From positions 1 to 30,695 of IMG/VR virus record IMGVR_UViG_3300031578_000232: a stretch of DNA of 30,695 bases, one strand, 5' to 3'. The notes under the pieces were generated by a model, which saw only the letters and a list, made by a program, of their open reading frames with translations, was not told where the DNA came from and did no database searches. Source of the DNA: a virus. Below are positions 1-27,500 of this stretch, in pieces. How positions within the stretch are numbered: position 1 is the stretch's first letter; each line of letters opens with the position of its first letter. The position numbers and the translations under genes were made by a program.

Positions 1-959
1 TTAACACCAGCGATATTTAAGTCGGTGCCATCGTGTGCGAAGTCAACATAAATCGTCGGTCTTGTTACAACCCCGCCTGAAGCGTTTCCTATTCGGAAAC
101 TATAACCGTCCTGAATCCAAACAGCCTGCGTTCCTGCGTCAACTACGAACGACCATTCGTAATCTTCAAAACCTCCAGTTCCGGTAGTTCGCAATACGAC
201 CTCGCCGCCCTGAACGTAACTACCTACCTCAACTGCTTGAGTACCATTGAGACCGAATACGGCTAAGTCGCTAAGTATGTCTGAGGTTTCAAGCAGAAAT
301 TGGTTATAAAAAAGATCCCCTTCAACTGGTTTTGCGCCAGCGATAGTTTCAGAACCACCACCCCATTGAGTTGCACCACCAATATAGGCGTTACCGCCGA
401 GGTCGAGCTTTATACCATACTGACCGAGCGAGGGTGTTGCTGCCTCAACACTAAAAGTGCCGTAAGCATCATCGGCAGTAACAGTATAGGAACCACCACC
501 GGCAGAAGTAAGCACTATGTCAAAAGTGTTACTATCCAGATCACCACCTAGTTGCGGCGTTAAGTCCTCGACAACATTTATGGTGCCAGCACCTCTAATA
601 CCTTGGGCCCAGTTAATGGCGGTTGTTCCAATGATAATTGGTAGCGCAGAGGTGACGCGATATACGACAGGCTCGGAAGCATTCACACCAGCAAGCACGA
701 TCGTATTGAGCGTCACATCTCTGTTGCCATCGAAGTCTGCCGAACGATTCCAAGTACTGCTTGTGACATCATAGATGCCGTTTTCAACCGGATTAGTCTG
801 GTCCTTCACAAGGACTCGATCGCCAGAGACAACAGCAACACCGTTGACCGTCTGCACACCATCAAGGACGAGGTTCACATCGGATGCCACCACACAAGGA
901 GATTTGATAGCTAAGCTAGAAACCAACCCGTTAAATCGATCAACAGAATTCCCAACCAT
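1..959 (-). CDS. Tail fibre or tail-spike protein, N-terminal part (cut by window edge)
   Basis: The frame is open from an ATG at 957-959 to the left edge, giving 319 codons with no stop, so the 3' end lies outside the window. Residues of about 15-75 (LVLDGVQTVNGVAVVSGDRVLVKDQ begins this stretch, continuing with NPVENGIYDV and a WNRSADFDG motif) match the N-terminal module common to many phage tail fibres and spikes. Known fibres use this region near the particle-attached end. The rest is Gly/Thr/Val-rich and predicted beta, with no visible catalytic motif. Its ATG overlaps the stop of the upstream 2845-residue gene (TAATG), and a GGTGGA Shine-Dalgarno-like sequence sits about six bases before it. 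Receptor specificity would lie in the missing C-terminal part. The fibre assignment is by motif recognition; whether it also has depolymerase activity cannot be told. Confidence 0.75.
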   Translation of the reverse strand, partial: MVGNSVDRFNGLVSSLAIKSPCVVASDVNLVLDGVQTVNGVAVVSGDRVLVKDQTNPVENGIYDVTSSTWNRSADFDGNRDVTLNTIVLAGVNASEPVVYRVTSALPIIIGTTAINWAQGIRGAGTINVVEDLTPQLGGDLDSNTFDIVLTSAGGGSYTVTADDAYGTFSVEAATPSLGQYGIKLDLGGNAYIGGATQWGGGSETIAGAKPVEGDLFYNQFLLETSDILSDLAVFGLNGTQAVEVGSYVQGGEVVLRTTGTGGFEDYEWSFVVDAGTQAVWIQDGYSFRIGNASGGVVTRPTIYVDFAHDGTDLNIAGV

Positions 960-3900
960 TACTTGTCCACCGTTCCCGTAAAGTATTCATACAAAGCAAC
1001 ATCATCATCGGACATCACGGCCTCGACAAATCTGTTCACCTGTGTCGAAGGCAGATGGAATAGTGTACCACCCACCTTAACTCCAGCCTTAATCGCAGCC
1101 TCGTCAAATTCACCCTGGTCTACCTGCTGGCTAAACTTCCACGTATCCATGACGAGCGCACCAAATGGTGTGTTTCCTGACGCATACTTGGCAGCGTTTA
1201 TCTCTCTCACCATTGGTATGCCTGACGTAACAGACTCAGCCGTCACAGATGCCAGCCATCCAACAACCGATTGATCGTCATCGTCATCTCCGGGTAGTCG
1301 ACCGTACAGGAGAGATGATGCAATGCCTTCAATCATAAACAGCAGGATGTAATCGGTCAGCGCGTATGTCACTGACTTGACGCTGCGATAGTCGGTTCTT
1401 TTGTGTGTTTCATAGGCCAGATTGCCCTTGGCAAGCATGTACGATATTAGCGTTGTCCACATACGAATAAACTGAGACTGCCTTGATCGAGTACCAAGGG
1501 TGCCGCGCTCTATGCCAGATCTATCAGAAAAGAATCCGGACGTCTGTGACGCCTCAACCTGTGTGTCAGCATATATCCCAGCCTTTTCTTCACTAAGGCC
1601 AATCTCGTTGATACCCTTCTCGTAGGCTCCCATCCATGTAGTAACGTCAACTACTGACTGCATCTTTGCAATAGGATAGAAATAATAATGGCCCATGCTA
1701 TCCAGCAAACCCTTCGCTTTTGTGGGTACTGGACCAAAAAATGACTTCAGAAAATTCTGCGTATCCTGAACATCTTTATCCCATGTCTGAAGGACTCCAT
1801 AGCGAGCCTCCATAAACTTCGACTTTTCCATCACCATCTTATAGTTTCCTACTGGATTTGAGATGAACTTGCCGACACCGATCGCATAATTTCGAGAGCC
1901 AATAACCGCGGCAGACTGAAATATTCCAGTAAGCTGCAGAGCCGTAACATAGACGTTGAATGCTAGCTTGGACTTTGTAAAACCAACTCGCGTCCATGCC
2001 AGACTCTTTTCCCAGACAGATTGGGCTGGAAGCTCACCGACCGCAGAGTCGCTAAGCCATAACTTCAGCTCTTTTATCGCAGATAGGTTTCCGGTATTTT
2101 TCGCAGCCCTTTCAACTTCCTTACTATTCAGGATTCGGTTTACTAGATTAACCTCATCGCCAAGCGTCAGATCTCGGATCAGTTCACGAATGTTTGAATC
2201 AATGGTATTGAGGCTTAGCTTAACTATCTTGCCGTGATTATTGAGACGCTCGTAAGTTGCTCCGGCTCTAGTGTTGATGCTGACGTATGTTCCATTCGTT
2301 ACCCGATTGAAGTAATCATCAAAAGCAGCCTCTCGTTGATCCTTCTGCTCACTCTTAGTAGCTATTCCACTACTATGATCGCTGTTGTAGCGGAGAGGAT
2401 GATAGCCGCCACGGACAGATATCATCTCCCCGTCGACAGTTCTAATCTCAAACGGTAATGCCTCTACGCGCTCTGGAGCTATACCGCGGCGCCTCTTCTC
2501 AGTCTCTGCCATCTCTTCATAGAAACTTCCCTCGTAATCCCAGACTGCCTGAACAAACGCCCAATCCCTTTTGTCTAGTCGAGCTAATGCTTGAGCAACG
2601 CCCTGTTCTGGATACGCCTGAGACTCTATGCCGTTTTCATCCGTCAGCGTACCGCCGAGGAGTGCAGCACGATTACCCTCGGTTCCCCAGTTCAGGGCTA
2701 TCGAAAGAATATCTGCCTTGGACATCTTTTCGCCAAGGGTTTCATCTTCAATCTTTTTGGCTAATCCCTTCAGCTCATCATTGCTGTAGTGCTCGCGATA
2801 GATAGCAGCAATATCCTCAGCCGCCTTATGCTGGCGAGGAATAAGTTTCTCAGCGTAGGCACGACGTATAGGTACGACAATCCTCTGAGTTACAGCACCA
2901 AAACCAGATTTATCAAGGATCCTGGCAATGGAGCTGGTACGCAGCCAGTGACCAATGCCTTCCTTAATGCTGCGCTTAATAACCTGACCGCCAGTAGGCT
3001 CTCCGAGTGGGATCTTTTCCTTCTTGCTGTTCTCTCTAATGCTTGTTGCTACGTCGTCAACAGCCTGCTGAATAATAACTCTCTCACCATTTATGACGAT
3101 CTCATACTGCGTCTTGCCTTGGTGTTCAAGCTGCTTGACGACATCCCTAATGCCAGAGAATTCCTCAACCGTAAGCTCTTTCCAGTTTATCCCGCCCGGT
3201 GTTTGAAGTGACTGCAACACAGATTGAGGCACGATGAGAGTGCCATCTTTAACACCATCCATGATTGCCGCAAACATCTCAGCATTAATAGCGTTCTGAT
3301 CGAGCTTCTTGTTCGAGACGTTGCGGAAGTTAATGCCTTCTATTACGGCATCAATCTTCTCAAGAACCCCTGCCTTACCCATTCTGATACGCTTCGACTT
3401 CTTATCAAAACTCTTCAGGTACTTCTGGTCTCGAACGGCCTGCTCCTTAGCTCGTGTTGCAGCACGATATGCCTCGTGATTAATGACCTGCAATCTCTTC
3501 TGAGCATAGGCGTTCTCATAGTCTTTCTTAGCCATAGCCTCAAACGCCAGACGACCAGCCTTACGCTCGGCCATGAGGTAGACATTCGGATTAAGATCAC
3601 GAATACGTTTACCATCAATGATCTTATTTGCCGCTGCCTTGATATGAGCAAGGCTATCGCCAGTCGGAACCTGACCCTTGTTGGCTGCGATCGAACTACG
3701 CTCAGCATCGGTAGCATCCTTCTTGGCCACCGACACAGCTTTGGCATGTTCATTCATCAGCTTTTTAGCGGCCTTCAATTCAACCGCAAGAATTCTTGAG
3801 CGCTTATTGGTATGAACCGCTCTGGTGGCATCATTGATGATGTCAGGATTATTGACTGGATTAGGGTGCGCCTCATCCATTCGTTTCTTGGCCTCATCCT

Positions 3901-6900
3901 TAATGAACTGCTCCATCTTCGGAGCTTTAATCATCGCCTGAATCAACTCATTCCCAGAGTTATAGCCAAACATCATGGCAGCCTCATCGACATTAACTCC
4001 GCCTCCAGCCTGATACACAGAGTACTTGCCGCGGCCCGGTAGGCGCTTCATAAATTCCTTGCCGTAACGATCAACAAGATCTTTACCGCTCAGCTTAAAT
4101 GGCATAATTGGTGGAGTCTCACCATTCGGCAATGTCCCGCGCTGTAGCAGATAGAGAGCACGATAGACCTTCTCCATCTCAGCCTCGGCACGAACCTCAG
4201 CCTCCATCTTTTTAAGTTCCTCACGCCACCATTGCTGCTCAGCCCACTTCTCGGCCTGAATCATCTTATTGGATTCGATGTCGACAATCTCATCATGGGC
4301 TGCTGCCATGCTGGAGCGATACATATCAAATTTTCGCTGGCTAATTCCCATCTCTTCTGCTGTGGCATACAAAGCAACGTAGCCCATGTAATCCTCAGAG
4401 GCCTTAATCTGAGCATCAGTAGCTACCAGCCGATCGAATACACCACGAATCTCGTCGTTCAGCTCCTCACCTGGATTAAGTAACTGAGTGAGTTTTTTGT
4501 AGACCTGAATCATCCAACCCTTGAATGTAGAAAACAGCGGCTGAAGTTCAGCAGTTGGAGCTACGCCCTCACGAAGATAGACTTCAAATGATCTGGCAAA
4601 TAATTCATGCTGATCTGTGCCAACCTCGGAGCGTTTGTTCACGCCAAGGTATTTTAGAATCTTTGTATAGTCATCAATTAGATCTGGATTGGCATCAGGC
4701 ATCTCAGCAAGATCAGCCATCATCTCTAAATAAAGGTGAGCCGACTCATGGAACCAAGACGACAGATCCTTGGACTGAGACAATCGAACCATCGCTCCGC
4801 CTTCTTTCTGGAACGTAATAGATGCTCGGTTCTTATCCTGAAATAGAGTTTGACCCTCCATCGCAGCAACCTTGATTTTCTCAGTAATATCGAAACCGTG
4901 CTGGACGTTTACGAAACCTCTGGTCATGTTGTCGAGCCAATCACGAGCCTCGAGGTAGGTATCGAATCGAGGAGAGATCTGCTTGCGACCGGCATCGGCT
5001 GCCTCTGCCGTAGCAAAGTCCAACACCATTCCGCCACCAGTCCAAGCTGATACATAAAACGCTTCTTTGTCGACGACGCCCTCCACTAATGCACCGCCGC
5101 CTTTACGCTCTATCTTGGCCTGTCGAGGTTGGTCGCCGCCCTCCATCTGGATGCCAAACCGCTTGACCTTTACGCTCTTATCCAGCTTGCTCAATGCTCT
5201 GTTGGTGACGTTGACCATCAGCTCGTCATAGCGCTGACGTAGCCCCTTACCCTCCTCGTCGACCATATCAACAGCAGTCAGGCTTGGCAGACCATCACCA
5301 AAAGCCATGTCATCCCGAATCTCCTCAATGCCCTCCTCATACTCAGCCATCTGGTAGTCGCCACCACCCATACGCACAATCTCACCATTCTGATCGATCA
5401 TAACGTATGCCGATCCGCCCTCCATCCACTTGCGCTCATACGTGCCAATGAACGGGTCGTCATCCTCCAGCACAATCACATTGTCTGGGATCTCGTCGTT
5501 CACAACATCAGACTGGAGCCATACCTGAAAGATGTCATAGGCTGATCTCTTGATATCAATTTGGCGCTTCAACTCCAGCACACGCTCAGCTCCGAACACT
5601 AATTCAAGAGAGTCCATCGTGTGATGTTGACTTTGGATATATCGACCAGTCTCGTCGTAAGTGGCAAGCATCTCGTCACGCGGATCCCATGTGATCTCAC
5701 TGAAATGCTCATTGATGTCGTAGCGTTGCAACTGCTGGGCGCCAGTGGTCCACGTTACCTGATCGTAGCCACCCTCAACTGCCAGCCTGATGATGCGCTT
5801 CATAGCTAGCTCGGCCCATGCGTCACCCTTGAATGGCATGTTCGGAGTTGGGCCACCAGCTTGTATCTTCTCGTTTTCCTTGTAAGCCTCGAGCCATCTG
5901 TTCATTTGGGCGCGTTGTTTCTTGGATAGGTCCTTAACATTTAATAGATTTGAACCGCCCTGCATGGGGGTCCTGTCACCTTCCAGCTTGCCATCCAACA
6001 TGGCGAACTCATTCATCTCTATTTCTACCGACCATTTCCCTCCGGAGTTGGCTTTGAATTTCTCTAGCATAGCCTTGGTTTCAAGTTTTACCTTGCCGAC
6101 CTTATTGAGAGAACGCATCTTCTGTTCATTGGTGTAGTTGTACCCATCAGTCAGGCCAGCCTGATGCAGGTCGCTCTGGGTCTCATCAACATGAAGTATC
6201 TTCTCGCCATTCGGACCCAAACGGTCGTTCACTCTCATCCACGCAATGATATTTTCCTGCGGGAATGCGTGACTATCGAAGTTGACTCCACGAGGCGCGT
6301 CTACAGGCTTATTGTCAATGATGTACTGCTTTGCCTTCTCAATCGTGTCGTATGGATCCTTGGGGATCTGAAATATCTGTGAGATCCGTCGAGCAACCGC
6401 TGAGCGATACGGACTGCTGGCATCGATGTACCAGTATTTCTCATTCTGGCTATCTTCATACTCTCTGCTGTCATTGATTGCTGCTGGAAAACCTATTTCA
6501 TGCAGATCTTCCTGGAGATATTTATAACCGCCAACTGCAGGAACGTGAAGCACGATCTCGCGATGATTTATTGCCATCGACCCGCTAGAAACTGTTGGAA
6601 GAGTCCAGTCTGTCCACCTTACTTGACCAGCCGAACCATCCTCACGCGATTCTTTAAGAAGGTACTCATCAATAGCCATCTCGGCATGGTAAAGGCTCTG
6701 CCCATTTACCCCAGTTATAATATCGAGCCACTCGCCAGTATCGTCGACCTGCACAGATACGTTGCCAGCCTCTAAATCTTCGATAACCGTGAACGAGCTT
6801 CCACCGTTGTAGTTTAGGATTCGAGCGTCATAGACAGTGACGCCCTCCTGCACCTCACCATCCTCGTCTATGTAAAGATCAGAATTTTCCATCGGCTCAA

Positions 6901-9496
6901 AGCTGCCCACGGTAGGATGATCGCCTTCGCCACGATAGAAAGTTTCTGTAACCTGTACGCCACCCTTATCGATGAACTCGATGATCTGATCGCGAGTGAT
7001 AATAAATTTATCGTTATACGGCTTGCCATCAATCCCATCCTGCATAGCCTGATTTAATTCTAAGCCCTCCATCCAGCTCTCAACATCAACAGCATCAAGC
7101 TCCTGCTGCTTGACATTGGGCTGCTTCTTGAGAGTCTCCAACATCTCCCGAATCGTGCCCTTCTCTCTAGGCATTGTTCTGGCCGCAGTAAGCAATCCAG
7201 ACGTCAATCCGATATCCGACTGAAACAGGGTGCGCTCGCCCTTATTGCTAAGCTCCTGGGTGAACTCTGTCAAGGCGTCATGGCGAGTCTGAGTTTCATC
7301 AATGTTCTCGCCGACCTGATACTCCTTGAATACAATGCCGCGCTTCATAAGGATTGCCCTAACATCTGCCGAAGCATCAGTCGGTATAATGGCGCCAGCA
7401 AACTCCTCAAACAGTACGGCTCGTTGTGGCTTAGCCTCAAAGTACGGAACTGGTACGGCCATCCAAAACATTGCCGCTTCCATACCCTCGTCGACTAGCA
7501 GCCCCGGCAGCATCCCATCTGTATCCCTGAATCCCTCACGAACAAGATCCTCTTCAAGATCATTGGCAGTAGGAAGCCCATCTCGCGTTGCCCATCGAAC
7601 GACAGCTCTTCGAGCTGCATCACCAGCCTCGAAATGATCGACGTAACCGTTAGGTCCAATGTTTGTGTAGTAATGAGCAATGTCGCCAATCCATGAATTC
7701 ATCTTTGCTTGAGACTCTTCACGCAAAGCAAAAACGGCATCCTTGTCCTCCATGATAAGTTCAGATCGCTGGCGCATCTGCTCTAGCTTCTTGAAGCGTA
7801 GTGCCGCAACAGCTCGCATTAGACCCTCGTTCATCATGTTATCCATGAACTCAGTTCCCTTGAGCTTTCCAGTCATCGACCTAACGATGTTCTCGAGGTT
7901 GTAATCAACCCACTTGCCATTGACTTTCAGACGGGGCTCGCCAAACATAGAGTTGACTCTTTTTTCTACCCAGTTCTTAAACTCGATCGGCGACGGCGTA
8001 TCCCTACCCAGGGCCAATCCAATAACATTAAGCATTGATTTATTGGTGCCAATGCGTCCGTTTAATAGATCGGTATTCGATAGGGTATCAAGCTCACGAG
8101 TGTTCTTTCTCTTGACATCTTCTTGTAATTCCCTGAACCGCATCTCAGCCAGAGTGCCATCACTGTTGAACAGCCCAGATTCATTGATGTACTTGGAAAC
8201 CTTTTCATTGAGCGTTGACTCATCGGTAAATCGATGTTGGAATCTCTCACGAACAGACTTCTCCATCGCTGCTTTGACAACATCGCCAGCCTTTTTCATT
8301 GTGGCTCTACGACGCGGATCCTCCCACTGATAGTTCAGCTCTCTAAAGCCACCACTAAAAAACTCGACAACTGGTTCATCCCACGACCAAGAAAATTTCG
8401 GAGTTACATCACGCTTGACTGGTGTCAGATCCTCACCAAATACCTCTTTCAGATACCAAGCCTTAACGGCATTACTGTCCATCAAGTGCCACATCATTAG
8501 CTGAGGATTAGGATGGTCCCTACCAGTCAGATCCAGGTAATAACCAAGATTTGACGTATTGCCCTCCCATTCATAAACATAGGGAAGAACATCGCGCCAT
8601 AGAGAATCTCTATCAGCAGCCTTTGGCTTCTTGAAGTCTGGCGATGGGAATCTTGCTGTATAACCATCGGCATCAAAGATTGGAATTTCAGCCGGGTCGC
8701 CAAGTAATTCAGTACCAATAAGAGTGATGTCGCCGAAACCACTAATGTTTCCGCCTTCTTTAATAACCGCTAACGATGGAACAGCAAGGCCTCCCAAGTC
8801 ATCGGCAAACTTCAACTTCTGAGCGTTTAGGTTATGCACAACCATCAGGCGAGGAAGGCCGGACTGGTAGAACGACTTGCCTTCTCTAATATTAAGAATG
8901 GCATCGCGATGAAAGTAGGCTTTCTCAAGCTCTTTATTTAGCTCAACGAATCGATTCTGAATATCAATCTTTCGTTGTTCCAGCTTGCGATACCCGGCAA
9001 CCATCTCGAGCGCGGATCCAGACAAACCAAGATTTTTCAATCCAGCAGTCTCTTTTGACCGGAAAGAAAGCTGAGTCATTGCATCGAGGAGCTGCCTTTC
9101 ATCGGTAACGTCGACATAAGCACCAGTATCCTTATTGGCATTAAGTCGAACACGTTGAACAGCGTGTAAAGCATCTATAACGTCGGTGTATTCGCTCGAT
9201 AGCTTCTTCGCCTCAGTCCTCAATTCCTTTTTTGTTTCTTCAATCTGCTGCAGCTTACGAGCTTGGAATTCAACCAGCTTTGTAATGGTGTTCTCGAAAG
9301 GTGCTAACGTCGCACCTTCATTGCGAGCGCGGTTAGCGATGTCCACAACATTCTGGTAAGCCATGAGCGTTGCAGCTCGAATAGCCTGAGATTCAGTCAT
9401 GCCTGCAGCTAAGGCGTTCTCAATCGCGACCTTCTGGGCATCCGATACCGGAATGCCAGCTCGCTCCATCTTTTTGATGCAATCCTTCAGCGCCAT
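959..9496 (-). CDS. Giant polyvalent protein (2845 aa) with zincin-like metallopeptidase domain
   Basis: This single 2845-residue frame has the layout of phage polyvalent proteins, which are carried in the virion and injected with DNA. Visible modules in order: a conserved N-terminal stretch with HNLNA at 221-225 followed by a GGLAVPSLAV motif; a module at about 700-735 ending in a LFQ motif (757-759), which in these proteins often marks a domain boundary; a conserved module at about 800-1255 with WMEGL, DETQSD near 1104 and WTTGAQQ...RYD near 1248; a second LFQ at 1551-1553; a metallopeptidase domain with HESAH at 1583-1587 and a downstream HELFARSFEVYLREG segment likely giving the third ligand; a Lys/Glu/Ala-rich probable coiled coil at about 1690-2100; a conserved region with LNWGTEGNR near 2260 and YHPLRYN at 2365; and a C-terminal region with KLAFNVYV at 2510 and a hydrophobic helix near 2712-2735 followed by a run of five Asp. 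No methylase, helicase or ADP-ribosyltransferase motif was recognised. Cleavage by the protease domain is inference. Confidence 0.85.
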   Translation of the reverse strand: MALKDCIKKMERAGIPVSDAQKVAIENALAAGMTESQAIRAATLMAYQNVVDIANRARNEGATLAPFENTITKLVEFQARKLQQIEETKKELRTEAKKLSSEYTDVIDALHAVQRVRLNANKDTGAYVDVTDERQLLDAMTQLSFRSKETAGLKNLGLSGSALEMVAGYRKLEQRKIDIQNRFVELNKELEKAYFHRDAILNIREGKSFYQSGLPRLMVVHNLNAQKLKFADDLGGLAVPSLAVIKEGGNISGFGDITLIGTELLGDPAEIPIFDADGYTARFPSPDFKKPKAADRDSLWRDVLPYVYEWEGNTSNLGYYLDLTGRDHPNPQLMMWHLMDSNAVKAWYLKEVFGEDLTPVKRDVTPKFSWSWDEPVVEFFSGGFRELNYQWEDPRRRATMKKAGDVVKAAMEKSVRERFQHRFTDESTLNEKVSKYINESGLFNSDGTLAEMRFRELQEDVKRKNTRELDTLSNTDLLNGRIGTNKSMLNVIGLALGRDTPSPIEFKNWVEKRVNSMFGEPRLKVNGKWVDYNLENIVRSMTGKLKGTEFMDNMMNEGLMRAVAALRFKKLEQMRQRSELIMEDKDAVFALREESQAKMNSWIGDIAHYYTNIGPNGYVDHFEAGDAARRAVVRWATRDGLPTANDLEEDLVREGFRDTDGMLPGLLVDEGMEAAMFWMAVPVPYFEAKPQRAVLFEEFAGAIIPTDASADVRAILMKRGIVFKEYQVGENIDETQTRHDALTEFTQELSNKGERTLFQSDIGLTSGLLTAARTMPREKGTIREMLETLKKQPNVKQQELDAVDVESWMEGLELNQAMQDGIDGKPYNDKFIITRDQIIEFIDKGGVQVTETFYRGEGDHPTVGSFEPMENSDLYIDEDGEVQEGVTVYDARILNYNGGSSFTVIEDLEAGNVSVQVDDTGEWLDIITGVNGQSLYHAEMAIDEYLLKESREDGSAGQVRWTDWTLPTVSSGSMAINHREIVLHVPAVGGYKYLQEDLHEIGFPAAINDSREYEDSQNEKYWYIDASSPYRSAVARRISQIFQIPKDPYDTIEKAKQYIIDNKPVDAPRGVNFDSHAFPQENIIAWMRVNDRLGPNGEKILHVDETQSDLHQAGLTDGYNYTNEQKMRSLNKVGKVKLETKAMLEKFKANSGGKWSVEIEMNEFAMLDGKLEGDRTPMQGGSNLLNVKDLSKKQRAQMNRWLEAYKENEKIQAGGPTPNMPFKGDAWAELAMKRIIRLAVEGGYDQVTWTTGAQQLQRYDINEHFSEITWDPRDEMLATYDETGRYIQSQHHTMDSLELVFGAERVLELKRQIDIKRSAYDIFQVWLQSDVVNDEIPDNVIVLEDDDPFIGTYERKWMEGGSAYVMIDQNGEIVRMGGGDYQMAEYEEGIEEIRDDMAFGDGLPSLTAVDMVDEEGKGLRQRYDELMVNVTNRALSKLDKSVKVKRFGIQMEGGDQPRQAKIERKGGGALVEGVVDKEAFYVSAWTGGGMVLDFATAEAADAGRKQISPRFDTYLEARDWLDNMTRGFVNVQHGFDITEKIKVAAMEGQTLFQDKNRASITFQKEGGAMVRLSQSKDLSSWFHESAHLYLEMMADLAEMPDANPDLIDDYTKILKYLGVNKRSEVGTDQHELFARSFEVYLREGVAPTAELQPLFSTFKGWMIQVYKKLTQLLNPGEELNDEIRGVFDRLVATDAQIKASEDYMGYVALYATAEEMGISQRKFDMYRSSMAAAHDEIVDIESNKMIQAEKWAEQQWWREELKKMEAEVRAEAEMEKVYRALYLLQRGTLPNGETPPIMPFKLSGKDLVDRYGKEFMKRLPGRGKYSVYQAGGGVNVDEAAMMFGYNSGNELIQAMIKAPKMEQFIKDEAKKRMDEAHPNPVNNPDIINDATRAVHTNKRSRILAVELKAAKKLMNEHAKAVSVAKKDATDAERSSIAANKGQVPTGDSLAHIKAAANKIIDGKRIRDLNPNVYLMAERKAGRLAFEAMAKKDYENAYAQKRLQVINHEAYRAATRAKEQAVRDQKYLKSFDKKSKRIRMGKAGVLEKIDAVIEGINFRNVSNKKLDQNAINAEMFAAIMDGVKDGTLIVPQSVLQSLQTPGGINWKELTVEEFSGIRDVVKQLEHQGKTQYEIVINGERVIIQQAVDDVATSIRENSKKEKIPLGEPTGGQVIKRSIKEGIGHWLRTSSIARILDKSGFGAVTQRIVVPIRRAYAEKLIPRQHKAAEDIAAIYREHYSNDELKGLAKKIEDETLGEKMSKADILSIALNWGTEGNRAALLGGTLTDENGIESQAYPEQGVAQALARLDKRDWAFVQAVWDYEGSFYEEMAETEKRRRGIAPERVEALPFEIRTVDGEMISVRGGYHPLRYNSDHSSGIATKSEQKDQREAAFDDYFNRVTNGTYVSINTRAGATYERLNNHGKIVKLSLNTIDSNIRELIRDLTLGDEVNLVNRILNSKEVERAAKNTGNLSAIKELKLWLSDSAVGELPAQSVWEKSLAWTRVGFTKSKLAFNVYVTALQLTGIFQSAAVIGSRNYAIGVGKFISNPVGNYKMVMEKSKFMEARYGVLQTWDKDVQDTQNFLKSFFGPVPTKAKGLLDSMGHYYFYPIAKMQSVVDVTTWMGAYEKGINEIGLSEEKAGIYADTQVEASQTSGFFSDRSGIERGTLGTRSRQSQFIRMWTTLISYMLAKGNLAYETHKRTDYRSVKSVTYALTDYILLFMIEGIASSLLYGRLPGDDDDDQSVVGWLASVTAESVTSGIPMVREINAAKYASGNTPFGALVMDTWKFSQQVDQGEFDEAAIKAGVKVGGTLFHLPSTQVNRFVEAVMSDDDVALYEYFTGTVDK

Positions 9497-24785: not shown

Positions 24786-24822
24786 AAACAAGAAAGGGGT
24801 AGACCCGAATGAGTCTACCCCT
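24786..24822 (-). terminator. Intrinsic terminator after capsid/decoration genes
   Basis: On the minus strand a perfect 10-bp stem (AGGGGTAGAC with GTCTACCCCT, at 24795-24804 and 24813-24822) with an 8-base loop is followed directly by TTCTTGTTT. This is a classical rho-independent terminator. It lies 33 bases after the stop of the decoration-type gene and just before the ribosome site of the next gene. It would lower tail-gene transcription relative to the capsid, as known in other podoviruses. Confidence 0.85.
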
Positions 24823-24855
24823 CGCATTGTCACGCAGATTACCCGGCTATACCAG

Positions 24856-25128: not shown

Positions 25129-25989
25129 TTATGCCGCTGCAAGAGCAGAACCGTCATGTGCTACCAAGCACACACCAGAATTCTGAAGCAGTTGTGAGCC
25201 CATGTAGATCGAAGTGCGGCACCAGCTATAGTCCTGCTCCTCGTCATACCCCGCCCGCGCTTCCAGATCGTCGGAATTGTACGCATGGCCGATTGCAGAC
25301 TTGTGGAACATATAGCATTCCTCAGTCGCAGAGCCAGCGCCACCGCCGCCTGTCAGGTTAGGATGAACGACCCAGTTAATTCCCAACCAGCGATATGCTA
25401 CTGGACGGTCACGCCATGCTGGATCAGCGGCGTCAAAAGGACCATTCATGGTGTAATCGCGAGAACTGAAGTCGTTTTCGCCCATCATGTAGGCCTCGTA
25501 GGCTGGCGTCACAATAAACGTGATGTTGCCATCCCAAGGTACATCGTTGTTACCAAGTACCGTTTTCGCACGGAGAGTACGAAGTGTTGATGCTACTACC
25601 GCCGCACCGATATTCACGGTGCTGGTTGCAAGCTCGCCAAGAATGTCCTGGTCAATCTTGCGATTGATTACGCCCATCGACGTTTTCTGCATGATCGCGC
25701 GCTGGTTTCCCTGCGATGCGAAGATGTTGAAATCAGTCTTGCGTACCAGATCATGCCATTCGACAAGTGTCGCAACGGGCTGGCTGAGGTTATCGCCGCG
25801 AGCCGGAATCAATCCGTTTACGCCGCGAGTCTTAGCGGTTGCTCCGCCAGAGTCAGCTACCAGAAATGTCGCCTGATTACCCTTGATGACCGATTCGGTC
25901 GTGGTAAACGTGCGAATTAATGACTGTAGCTGTTCAAAACCGGAAATGAATTCTTGCCGGTATTGGATTTGAAATGCTGTTTCGGCCAT
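25129..25989 (-). CDS. Major capsid protein (286 aa)
   Basis: The sequence fits podovirus major capsid proteins of HK97-type fold: an N-terminal helical arm (FQIQYRQEFISGFEQLQS), LVRKTDFNIFASQGNQRAIM (long helix region), INRKIDQDILGELATSTVNIG, then a FIVTPAYEAYMMGENDFSSRDYTMNGP region and the WLGINWVVHPNL segment near the end. It has no N-terminal propeptide that I can see. The start has GGAG seven bases upstream, at the end of a 220-base structured leader. The upstream scaffold, downstream decoration-type gene and terminator fit the usual head cassette. T number and copy count cannot be judged from sequence. Confidence 0.88.
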   Translation of the reverse strand: MAETAFQIQYRQEFISGFEQLQSLIRTFTTTESVIKGNQATFLVADSGGATAKTRGVNGLIPARGDNLSQPVATLVEWHDLVRKTDFNIFASQGNQRAIMQKTSMGVINRKIDQDILGELATSTVNIGAAVVASTLRTLRAKTVLGNNDVPWDGNITFIVTPAYEAYMMGENDFSSRDYTMNGPFDAADPAWRDRPVAYRWLGINWVVHPNLTGGGGAGSATEECYMFHKSAIGHAYNSDDLEARAGYDEEQDYSWCRTSIYMGSQLLQNSGVCLVAHDGSALAAA

Positions 25990-26008
25990 GTTGGCTCTCC
26001 AAAAGTTA

Positions 26009-26022
26009 GATTATCCATAATC
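26009..26022 (-). promoter_or_regulatory. Hairpin just before capsid ribosome site
   Basis: GATTA and TAATC form a perfect 5-bp stem with a 4-base loop, ending eight bases upstream of the GGAG. It is AT-rich, so weak, and may keep the ribosome site open or act as the last part of the leader. Confidence 0.4.
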
Positions 26023-26036
26023 CACTGTCGGGGTAG

Positions 26037-26094
26037 CCTGATCTTGCTGACCTTATGGGGTGTCCGATTAGGAGCCATAAGTTTCGGCATCAGG
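26037..26094 (-). promoter_or_regulatory. Two-part stem-loop in capsid leader
   Basis: In the minus-strand message an outer 6-bp stem (CCUGAU with AUCAGG, 26089-26094 and 26037-26042) encloses an inner 7-bp stem (CUUAUGG with CCAUAAG, 26075-26081 and 26052-26058), with asymmetric internal loops of 7 and 9 bases and a 16-base terminal loop. All 13 pairs are Watson-Crick. Two nested perfect stems make chance less likely. Confidence 0.5.
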
Positions 26095-26098
26095 AGCC

Positions 26099-26165
26099 GT
26101 TGGGCGCCGGGGCTCTTACGAGGGTGTCCAGCTAGGTGTGGTAGGCGAAATTTACAGCGCCCAAC
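26099..26165 (-). promoter_or_regulatory. Long-range GC-rich stem in capsid leader
   Basis: GUUGGGCGCUG (26155-26165) pairs with CGGCGCCCAAC (26099-26109) over 11 bp with one G-U, eight of the pairs being G-C. The 45-base interior includes a small CUC-GUAA-GAG hairpin with a GNRA loop. This is the most stable single stem in the leader as judged by eye. Confidence 0.5.
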
Positions 26166-26168
26166 CGT

Positions 26169-26213
26169 TGAATGCAATAGCGGCTGTAACTTAGTTACAG
26201 TCTACTGCACTCA
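26169..26213 (-). promoter_or_regulatory. Long hairpin overlapping the stop of the 54-residue gene
   Basis: A lower 12-bp stem (26169-26180 with 26202-26213, two G-U pairs) and an upper 7-bp stem (CUGUAAC with GUUACAG, 26184-26190 with 26194-26200) are separated by a small internal loop (one base opposite three) and capped by a 3-base loop. It includes the TGA at 26211-26213. No U tract follows, so it is more like an RNase processing or message-end structure than a terminator. Confidence 0.6.
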
Positions 26214-26375
26214 TCCACCTAGCTTCGGTCCCTGTCTTAGAGGTGTTCTGGCCTGACTAGAAGGAGTTGCCGGGAGCGCCATAGTGCCACTAAACCCAGG
26301 AGCTTCTGACTTATCCTTTTTAGTCAGACTTTTGAACCTTTCTGAGGTTTGGATTTTGCTAAATAGACCAGCCAT
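26211..26375 (-). CDS. Tiny Pro/Thr-rich protein before capsid gene (54 aa)
   Basis: Reading the minus strand gives an unbroken 54-codon frame that starts MAGLFSKIQTSERFKSLTKK and ends RQGPKLGG before TGA. An AGGT ribosome site lies about eight bases before the ATG, and the ATG comes five bases after the TAA of the preceding small gene, which supports it as a real gene. It is basic, with a Pro/Ser/Thr-rich second half and no membrane segment. Like the gene before it, it opens with a short M-x-x-L-x-x-K-hydrophobic pattern, so the two may be distant duplicates. Its place between scaffold and capsid suggests a minor head-assembly factor; function is unknown. Confidence 0.55.
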   Translation of the reverse strand: MAGLFSKIQTSERFKSLTKKDKSEAPGFSGTMALPATPSSQARTPLRQGPKLGG

Positions 26376-26380
26376 ATCAA

Positions 26381-26563
26381 TTACCTGCTCAATGTAGTTT
26401 GAATTCCGCCAAGGCTTTTAGACATTCTGGTTCCTGCTGGCCTGCTTGGTGTGTTTGTTGGAGAAGAGGTTGGAGCGGTTGGAGCCCTTCCGGTATATGC
26501 GGCTGATCCAAAACCCTTTGATAACGGACCCCTTGCCCTGACCTTTTTGATTAAACTTCCCAT
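26381..26563 (-). CDS. Tiny basic Pro/Thr-rich protein after scaffold (60 aa)
   Basis: The 60-residue product begins MGSLIKKVRARGPLSKGF and continues with TGRAPTAPTSSPTNTPSRP and a MSKSLGGI segment. It is strongly basic and probably disordered in its second half. An AGGGA ribosome site sits six bases before the ATG, overlapping the end of the scaffold gene, whose stop is 11 bases upstream. Short Pro/Thr-rich proteins occur among head genes in other podoviruses, but I do not know a function for any of them. Confidence 0.55.
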   Translation of the reverse strand: MGSLIKKVRARGPLSKGFGSAAYTGRAPTAPTSSPTNTPSRPAGTRMSKSLGGIQTTLSR

Positions 26564-26573
26564 AAATAATCCC

Positions 26574-27500
26574 TTATTTTGCTGCTTGTTTAATCCGGAT
26601 ATCGTACAGCGATCTCAATCGATCCTGCTTTGCGACATCGTTATTGTATTCTGTCCGATGCTCTTTCATAAACTTTTCGAGATCCTTAATCTCGTCATTC
26701 AGGGACTGTTGAGCAGTAATGCTATCGCCGCCCATTTCCATAACGGGATTAGTGACGCGAGCCAGTGCAGCCAAACCCTTTAGAACATTAGGATCGTTCA
26801 TAAAGGCCCGACCGTCCTGATAGCGGCCATTCAGAATCTGTTCGGCAGCTTCCTTGCCAAAGGTCGACGCAACCAGACCATTGACCAGATTGATGTTGGC
26901 GCGGTAGTCGGGACCCCAATCCGTGCGAAGCTGGTCGTTTGCTTCTGTGGATTGCTGTAAATCCATTTGCGCGATTTGATCTTGCTGCTGTTCGGCAAAA
27001 TTGTTGTACCACTCGATTGCTGCATGAGCGTATTCCGGAGGCGCGTTTTTGGCGTGTAAAGCCCCCATGAAATCCTCGAAGATTGCTTTGTCTTGTTCAC
27101 CAACAACCATTCCTGTAGGTAAATTCTCCAAATATCCCTTCGGTTCTGCCGGAATACCATTGGCTTCGCGATACGCTGCGATGTCCTCCGGCTTAGCTTC
27201 AGGTCCAGGAGGGGCCTTATAGGCGCCACTTGAAATAACTGTACGCTGCTCGCGAAACGCATTACCAAGATCGGCAGCAGAATTATAGCGCTGCAACGTC
27301 GACAAAAACTTGTCGTCATCACCAGCAATCTCTTTGCGCCAGTCTTTGTTTTTCAGGCCATCGAATTCCGTCAGAAAAGCGTCCGGCGTCTCATAAGACT
27401 TCAGCGCCTCAGCACGATCGGCGTTATCGCCGACCAGAGACGTCGACCAATGATCTTCACCGGGATTGATGGTTGTAACTGTTTTCTGTTCTGCTGGCAT
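26574..27500 (-). CDS. Capsid assembly scaffold protein (308 aa)
   Basis: The protein is acidic, Gln/Glu/Ala-rich and mostly helical, the usual make-up of phage scaffolds. Recognisable segments are FLTEFDGLKNKDWR near residue 45, a PPGPEAKPEDIAAYREANGIP linker, LENLPTGMVVGEQDKAIFEDF, and a C-terminal helical part with LNDEIKDLEKFMKEH that would bind the capsid protein. It lies between the Bbp19-like gene and the capsid cassette and starts with a TAATG overlap, AAGGA nine bases upstream. The scaffold guides capsid assembly and leaves the finished head. Confidence 0.8.
   Translation of the reverse strand: MPAEQKTVTTINPGEDHWSTSLVGDNADRAEALKSYETPDAFLTEFDGLKNKDWRKEIAGDDDKFLSTLQRYNSAADLGNAFREQRTVISSGAYKAPPGPEAKPEDIAAYREANGIPAEPKGYLENLPTGMVVGEQDKAIFEDFMGALHAKNAPPEYAHAAIEWYNNFAEQQQDQIAQMDLQQSTEANDQLRTDWGPDYRANINLVNGLVASTFGKEAAEQILNGRYQDGRAFMNDPNVLKGLAALARVTNPVMEMGGDSITAQQSLNDEIKDLEKFMKEHRTEYNNDVAKQDRLRSLYDIRIKQAAK

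What the first reader, a model, noticed from the sequence alone, without database searches (positions are those of the whole stretch)
25990..26213. Undescribed structured RNA leader directly ahead of the major capsid gene
In an otherwise gene-packed block this is the only long spacer. It contains four distinct inverted repeats (12+7 bp, 11 bp, 6+7 bp, 5 bp) and no convincing reading frame. It ends at the capsid ribosome site. Such density of pairing is unlikely by chance and suggests an RNA that controls capsid output, message stability or processing. I do not recognise it as any described riboswitch or leader family.
Basis: partly seen in the sequence, partly recalled or inferred. Interest (0 to 1): 0.75.

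Follow-up and report, generated by a model that had tools for sequence, protein, structure and literature searches.

The report
Capsid-gene RNA leader read by scaffold
The spacer ahead of this phage's capsid gene encodes a previously undescribed folded RNA with three copies of one small motif, and the letters of that motif change in step with two amino acids of the neighbouring capsid-scaffolding protein, so the scaffold probably binds its own capsid message and tunes how much capsid is made.

Summary
A conserved leader RNA (about 26144-26001, minus strand) runs from a sigma-70-like promoter to the capsid ribosome site. The first inverted repeat and half of the second lie upstream of the transcript start and are not conserved; they cause most of the low folding energy. 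The proof is comparative: a covariance model from five relatives finds the RNA at 74 capsid genes and nowhere else; 27 of 31 pairs change on both sides. Rfam has no match.

The RNA holds three copies of an internal loop, G[NYAMC]C / G[CY]C, one in a pseudoknot. The copies evolve in concert: M is A in all three or C in all three, switching at least seven times. The putative scaffolding protein, encoded upstream, tracks this: residue 72 is F with A and Y with C (45/45); residue 86 is Q/E with A and R/K/V with C (46/46); simulated traits match this in 0/2000. In a second, distant phage group residue 86 again predicts a loop letter (47/47). Most likely the scaffold binds the three loops and couples capsid translation to assembly. 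Binding and direction of control are inferred.

The parts
26172..26177 (-). -35 element TTGCAT of the capsid promoter (17-nt spacer)
   Evidence: Same position in relatives as TTGACA/TTGTCA/TTGCAT; best promoter score of at least 9/12 in 39 of 49 leaders against 2.6% of shuffles
26149..26154 (-). -10 element TAAATT; transcript expected to begin near 26142
   Evidence: in 36 of 49 leaders the -10 ends 4-5 nt before the aligned leader, so the RNA starts at P0
26001..26144 (-). Conserved leader RNA (covariance model hit)
   Evidence: Model R1, not trained on it: E 3.7e-12; R2: 96.3 bits
26138..26141 (-). P0 5' strand CCAC, pairs with GUGG 26022-26025
   Evidence: CCAC/GUGG replaced by CGAC/GUCG in relatives
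26106..26132 (-). P1 hairpin with module copy 1: X1 = ACACC 26123-26127, Y1 = CC 26111-26112
   Evidence: P1 pairs covary; E 0.0 and 0.02 at two pairs in the tree-based test, helices 2 and 3
26085..26099 (-). P2 hairpin; carries Y3 = CU 26095-26096 and pseudoknot strand CCUGA 26090-26094
   Evidence: P2 nearly invariant inside the main group; pseudoknot strand types CCUGA/UCAGG 26 and CCUGC/GCAGG 9
26052..26081 (-). P3 hairpin with module copy 2, reversed order: Y2 = CU 26073-26074, X2 = ACACC 26059-26063
   Evidence: All seven P3 pairs show change on both sides; best helix in the tree-based test
26031..26041 (-). Pseudoknot strand UCAGG 26037-26041 and module copy 3: X3 = CUACC 26032-26036
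   Evidence: Concerted A/C letter with copies 1 and 2 in 49/49 main-group RNAs
26022..26025 (-). P0 3' strand GUGG
   Evidence: Covaries with 26138-26141
26009..26022 (-). P5 hairpin with UGGA loop
   Evidence: Helix 7: 85.8% of cells paired, five of five pairs with change on both sides
25997..26000 (-). Capsid Shine-Dalgarno GGAG
   Evidence: Sequence; GGAG followed by GCC before the ATG in 37 of 41 main-group leaders
25129..25989 (-). Major capsid protein gene
   Evidence: phrog_3437 major head protein, E 1.1e-56
26574..27500 (-). Putative scaffolding (capsid assembly) protein, proposed binder of the three modules
   Evidence: phrog_3742; same gene position annotated as scaffolding or capsid assembly protein in isolates; residues track RNA type
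27285..27287 (-). Codon of scaffold Tyr72, specificity residue (F with A-type, Y with C-type RNAs)
   Evidence: 27/27 F and 18/18 Y
27243..27245 (-). Codon of scaffold Arg86, specificity residue (Q/E with A-type, R/K/V with C-type)
   Evidence: 28/28 and 18/18 in the main group; R 34/34 against non-R 13/13 by first loop letter in group 2
24794..24823 (-). Intrinsic-terminator-like hairpin closing the promoter-leader-capsid-86aa unit
   Evidence: similar hairpin after the capsid gene in 42 of 51 relatives against 2% of shuffles

Best explanation
A capsid-specific promoter makes an mRNA whose first ~145 nt fold into a compact RNA: a closing helix P0, hairpins P1-P3 and a pseudoknot. It displays three copies of the same internal loop. 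Shown here: the fold, the three copies, their concerted sequence change, and their tight co-change with residues 72 and 86 of the upstream putative scaffolding protein. Inferred: the scaffolding protein's N-terminal helix-turn-helix-like segment (helices 63-69 and 75-90) binds the three loops, and this couples capsid translation (or message stability) to the amount of free scaffold. I think it somewhat more likely that free scaffold licenses capsid synthesis, so that no coat is made without its chaperone, than that it represses it; the direction is not established.
For: RNA reality: model R1 from five relatives recovers 74 leaders, all at capsid genes in the right sense; 19 of 22 long contigs have a hit, one each; 27 of 31 pairs have change on both sides, 0/500 shuffles. 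Concerted copies: columns 22, 87 and 111 are AAA in 28 and CCC in 21 of 49 RNAs, tree-null E 0.0; at least 7 switches on the leader tree with the X strands removed; within-RNA copy distance 0.71 and 0.77 against 1.55 and 2.73 between RNAs in two groups, 0/20000 permutations. Partner: scaffold residue 72 separates types in 45/45 and residue 86 in 46/46 loci; normalised information 1.000 against a simulated 99th percentile of 0.756, 0/2000. Second group: residue 86 is R in 34/34 RNAs with first loop letter C and non-R in 13/13 others, 8 changes on the capsid tree, 0/2000 simulations; F72 goes with M=A in 18/18 and Y72 with M=C in 5/5. Model: 78, 82, 85, 86 and 89 share one face of helix 75-90.
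Against: No binding, expression or RNA-seq data. The protein has no recognised RNA-binding domain. Its scaffold role rests on gene position and annotation of relatives. Predicted Shine-Dalgarno pairing does not differ from shuffles in the main group and is only modestly higher in group 2, so the switching mechanism is unknown. A few distant RNAs have mixed letters (L077 AAU, L198 CAU, L073 UUC). R86 goes with a different loop position in the two groups, so the code is not one simple residue-base contact.
Confidence: 0.78

Rival explanations
1. Linkage only: the leader binds something else (host factor or small molecule), and scaffold residues match its type because neighbouring genes are inherited together.
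For: Scaffold and leader are under 600 bp apart; type has some tree signal for most neighbours.
Against: Only four scaffold columns in one 15-residue stretch track type; columns outside it reach at most 0.35 bits against 0.97. The capsid gene is closer, yet its best column classifies 45/57, and capsids differing by only 4 residues carry different types. The residue-86 link repeats in a second group.
Confidence: 0.08
2. The scaffold-bound leader is not mainly a regulator: it tethers scaffold to the capsid message so that coat is captured as it is made, or it nucleates procapsid assembly.
For: Explains three equivalent sites, placement on the capsid message and scaffold specificity.
Against: No RNA-in-procapsid data; the leader sits at the ribosome site (P5 and the Shine-Dalgarno follow directly), as regulators do.
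Confidence: 0.2
3. Ligand-free leader: structure only protects the capsid mRNA or keeps the ribosome site open.
For: Strong promoter, own terminator, high-output gene; structured 5' ends stabilise phage mRNAs (general knowledge).
Against: Does not explain shared letters in three copies or the scaffold code.
Confidence: 0.05
4. Antitermination (put- or nut-like) RNA that lets RNA polymerase pass the terminator after the capsid gene.
For: Lies just after a promoter and before a terminator in 42 of 51 loci; N/boxB pairs also diversify (general knowledge).
Against: The co-changing protein is encoded in the structural block, not as an early regulator; the terminator fits a short capsid unit.
Confidence: 0.04

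Closest known systems
P22 scaffolding protein (gp8) autoregulation (recalled, not read here)
   Same: A tailed-phage scaffolding protein adjusts synthesis of a head protein after transcription according to free scaffold
   Different: P22 scaffold acts on its own synthesis; here the site is a capsid-gene leader with three defined modules and a residue code
Coat protein operators of RNA phages (MS2, PP7, Qbeta; recalled)
   Same: A virion-assembly protein is expected to bind a structured site in phage mRNA near a ribosome site
   Different: Single hairpin with bulged A, RNA genome, coat not scaffold; here internal-loop modules in triplicate and a DNA phage
Lambdoid N protein / boxB RNA pairs (recalled)
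   Same: Phage-specific RNA motif and RNA-reading residues diversify together
   Different: Arginine-rich peptide on a hairpin loop, antitermination; here internal loops and a capsid-assembly protein
phi29 packaging RNA (recalled)
   Same: Structured phage RNA of similar size tied to the head
   Different: pRNA is a separate transcript on the packaging motor; this RNA is fused to the capsid ribosome site

Membership tests
Any Rfam 15 family | Score at or above the family's gathering threshold | tested here: not met
   No hit in the window, nor in six diverse relatives at E up to 5 beyond two chance matches elsewhere
Structured cis-regulatory leader | Compensatory base-pair changes beyond phylogeny | tested here: met
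Structured cis-regulatory leader | Fixed place in front of one gene | tested here: met
   One copy per genome, always before the capsid gene
Structured cis-regulatory leader | Effect on expression of that gene | not testable with these tools
   No expression data available
Riboswitch (small-molecule aptamer) | Invariant binding core across the class | tested here: not met
   Loop letters vary widely between phages but are shared within one RNA
Protein-operator leader (autogenous type) | Binding site co-varies with residues of an encoded protein | tested here: met
   Scaffold residues 72 and 86
Protein-operator leader (autogenous type) | Measured binding | not testable with these tools
   Needs gel shift or footprinting
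RNA-phage coat operator | Hairpin with bulged A and short loop bound by coat | tested here: not met
   Site is a 5x2 internal loop, and no capsid column tracks RNA type
phi29-type packaging RNA | Separate transcript, not fused to a gene | tested here: inconclusive
   RNA runs into the capsid Shine-Dalgarno in all leaders, which argues against it; transcript ends were not mapped
P22-type scaffold autoregulation | Scaffold changes its own synthesis | not tested
   No expression data; R2 finds only the capsid-gene site in each genome

The most novel reading that the evidence does not exclude
The scaffolding proteins of a large podovirus lineage are sequence-specific RNA-binding proteins with a readable two-residue code (main group: F72 and Q86 go with A, Y72 and R86 with C). 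Each binds a three-site RNA on its own phage's capsid message, so capsid translation or procapsid nucleation is licensed by scaffold, and the code diversifies as a phage-specific identity tag.
Probability: 0.6. Interest if true: 0.93.

Novelty: new variant of a known kind. Interest (0 to 1): 0.88.

Why it matters
How tailed phages balance coat and scaffold is a decades-old question. This would give a defined RNA site, a candidate protein and single-residue predictions that can be tested by exchange mutants. It would also be a natural case of RNA-protein coevolution in which three sites in one RNA switch together many times, useful for deciphering recognition codes and for orthogonal regulator pairs.

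Tried and rejected
Folding energy as proof: rejected, since the signal comes mostly from a non-conserved upstream hairpin. The capsid protein as partner: rejected, its best column classifies only 45 of 57, and capsids four residues apart differ in type. Gene trees of portal, scaffold, tail and small genes: 8-12 type changes each, so whole-gene trees do not point to the partner; only the residue test does. Shine-Dalgarno sequestration as the switch: not supported in the main group, weak in group 2. Rfam, Pfam and PDB searches for RNA or scaffold: no useful match. RNA in HTVC010P, Vibrio 1.254, CKB-S2, EXVC031P: not found. Literature: no report of this RNA or of scaffold binding to a capsid leader in the held library; the 2017 survey of 224 RNAs is not held. 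Partner search over 73 shared gene families: among proteins present in all 12 genomes only the scaffold showed a tight cluster of fully separating residues.

Full report
WHAT WAS CLAIMED AND WHAT IS THERE. The spacer 25990-26213 (minus strand) lies between a small ORF ending at 26211 and the capsid ATG at 25989. As RNA it folds far better than shuffles, z -5.2. Splitting it shows that the outer hairpin at 26169-26213 has z -6.4, while the part from the likely transcript start to the ribosome site, 25997-26142, has z -1.9.

PROMOTER AND TRANSCRIPT. In 49 unique main-group leaders a sigma-70-like promoter is found at a fixed place. Scores of 9 or more of 12 occur in 39 of 49 leaders against 2.6% of shuffles, and in 36 of 49 the -10 ends 4-5 nt before the aligned RNA. 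In the window it is TTGCAT-N17-TAAATT, so the RNA should begin near 26142, at P0. A terminator-like hairpin follows the capsid gene and an 86-aa gene (24794-24823). Such a hairpin occurs in 42 of 51 relatives against 2% of shuffles. The capsid gene thus looks like its own promoter-leader-gene-terminator unit inside the head operon. Start and end sites are inferred from sequence.

THE RNA IS CONSERVED. 307 stretches of viral contigs encode relatives of the capsid protein; 80 were kept. A covariance model built from five close relatives found 74 leaders, including the window at E 3.7e-12, all at capsid genes and in the sense orientation. The refined model found 84. Of 22 long contigs, 19 had a hit, one each; the hit in G017 is weak (E 0.47). 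On the refined alignment 92.5% of cells pair (69.6% in shuffles), 27 of 31 pairs have change on both sides, and slid structures fall to 25-43% paired. That alignment was fitted to the model, which favours the structure. A separate test with a tree-simulated null gave significant pairs in P0, P1 and P3. P2 hardly varies in the main group, so it is less certain. The pseudoknot strands occur as CCUGA/UCAGG (26) and CCUGC/GCAGG (9). Rfam has no match.

THREE COPIES OF ONE MODULE. P1, P3 and the pseudoknot each contain the same internal loop, 5'-G[N Y A M C]C-3' opposite 5'-G[C Y]C-3'. In P3 the strands come in the opposite order, so the copies cannot be kept alike by simple gene conversion of a stretch. 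The strongest signal outside base pairs is between the three M positions: AAA in 28 and CCC in 21 of 49 RNAs, no exception, E 0.0 under the tree null. With the X strands removed, the leader tree still needs at least 7 switches.

A SECOND, DISTANT GROUP SHOWS THE SAME. Leaders of group 2 (capsid relatives of L152; sequences) carry three modules with other letters: CUCAC, GUCAC, CUUC, CUCC, CUCG, UUCA, AUUC, GCACC and more. Again they are mostly the same in all copies of one RNA. Copy 1 against copy 2 within an RNA differs by 0.71 (main, n = 42) or 0.77 (group 2, n = 30) letters, against 1.55 and 2.73 between RNAs; 0 of 20,000 permutations reach this. Two-module versions exist (L088, L197), and the isolate Alteromonas phage ZP6 has two modules with G at M, GGUAGCC/GGUC, after a TTGACA-N18-TATAAT promoter (read by eye, the model R2 does not hit it).

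WHO READS THE MODULES. The capsid protein does not track the type: 13 type changes on its tree, best column 45 of 57, and capsids that differ at four conservative sites have different types. I compared all gene families shared by 12 long contigs, eight A-type and four C-type. Among proteins present in all 12, the putative scaffolding protein upstream of the leader had the only tight cluster of fully separating residues. In 46 loci, residue 72 is F in all 27 A-type proteins covering it and Y in all 18 C-type; residue 86 is Q or E in 28 of 28 A-type and R, K or V in 18 of 18 C-type. With the motif removed, the scaffold tree needs 9 type changes. Traits simulated with 6-10 changes reach a mean best normalised information of 0.53 (99% 0.76), never the observed 1.00 (0/2000). 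The 12 discovery genomes overlap the 46 loci, so this is not a fully independent set.

REPLICATION IN GROUP 2. The scaffold was recovered in 48 of 50 group-2 contigs. At the residue-86 column, R occurs in 34 of 34 RNAs whose loop starts with C, and another residue (Q6, N5, S1, E1) in 13 of 13 whose loop starts with G, U or A. The loop letter changes 8 times on the capsid tree, the best capsid column reaches 0.41, and simulated traits reach 1.0 in 0 of 2000. The loop position tied to residue 86 is N here and M in the main group, so the same residue matters but the contact may differ. F72 goes with M=A in 18 of 18 and Y72 with M=C in 5 of 5, the latter probably one clade. Distant loci agree as well: L076, L078, L087, L097 (F, Q, AAA) and L079 (Y, R, CCC); those with Y and Q, L073 and L198, have mixed letters. 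Loop letters in group 2 were read by eye, and a few RNAs have one deviating copy.

WHAT THE PROTEIN LOOKS LIKE. AlphaFold2 gives an all-helical protein (mean pLDDT 89, pTM 0.56). Residue 72 lies in the turn before helix 75-90, and residues 78, 82, 85, 86 and 89 share one face of that helix. This resembles a helix-turn-helix reading head, but no Pfam, PDB sequence or PDB fold match supports a known RNA-binding family. The scaffold role is inferred from its place between portal and capsid and from annotation of the same gene position in isolates.

MECHANISM. Shown: fold, triplication, concerted change, co-change with scaffold. Inferred: direct binding and its consequence. Coat made without scaffold forms aberrant shells in well-studied phages (general knowledge; [quoted passage not shown] Repression or mRNA-tethered assembly remain open. 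Predicted Shine-Dalgarno pairing gave no clear switch, although a GCC after the GGAG in 37 of 41 main-group leaders could pair with the GGCYCC module strand.

NOVELTY. Protein-bound leaders are a known kind. The 2017 RNA survey most likely to list the RNA was not available.

Noticed in passing
window 26169-26213 (-): Strong hairpin (z -6.4) over the stop codon of the upstream ORF; its centre is a perfect palindrome CTGTAACTAAGTTACAG (26184-26200) just upstream of the -35. L072 has TGTAAATAATTTACA at the same place. Possibly a DNA operator or a read-through RNA end.
   Followed up: partly
window 26381-26563 and 26211-26375 (-): Small ORFs between scaffold and leader are replaced by unrelated small basic ORFs in relatives, many ending in TPL[S/R] or GGTKH..VAS; possibly a shared C-terminal tag.
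   Followed up: no
window 24794-24823 (-): Terminator-like hairpin after capsid plus 86-aa gene, conserved in 42 of 51 relatives.
   Followed up: yes
L217 555-710 (Alteromonas phage ZP6): Strong promoter and two G-type modules ahead of the capsid gene of a cultured phage.
   Followed up: partly
L221 500-701 (Methylophilales phage MEP301) and L223: Other long, promoter-headed capsid leaders of different sequence; may be further relatives.
   Followed up: no
window 959-9496 (-): One 2845-aa ORF fills more than a quarter of the contig; relatives have 1473-2845 aa versions.
   Followed up: no
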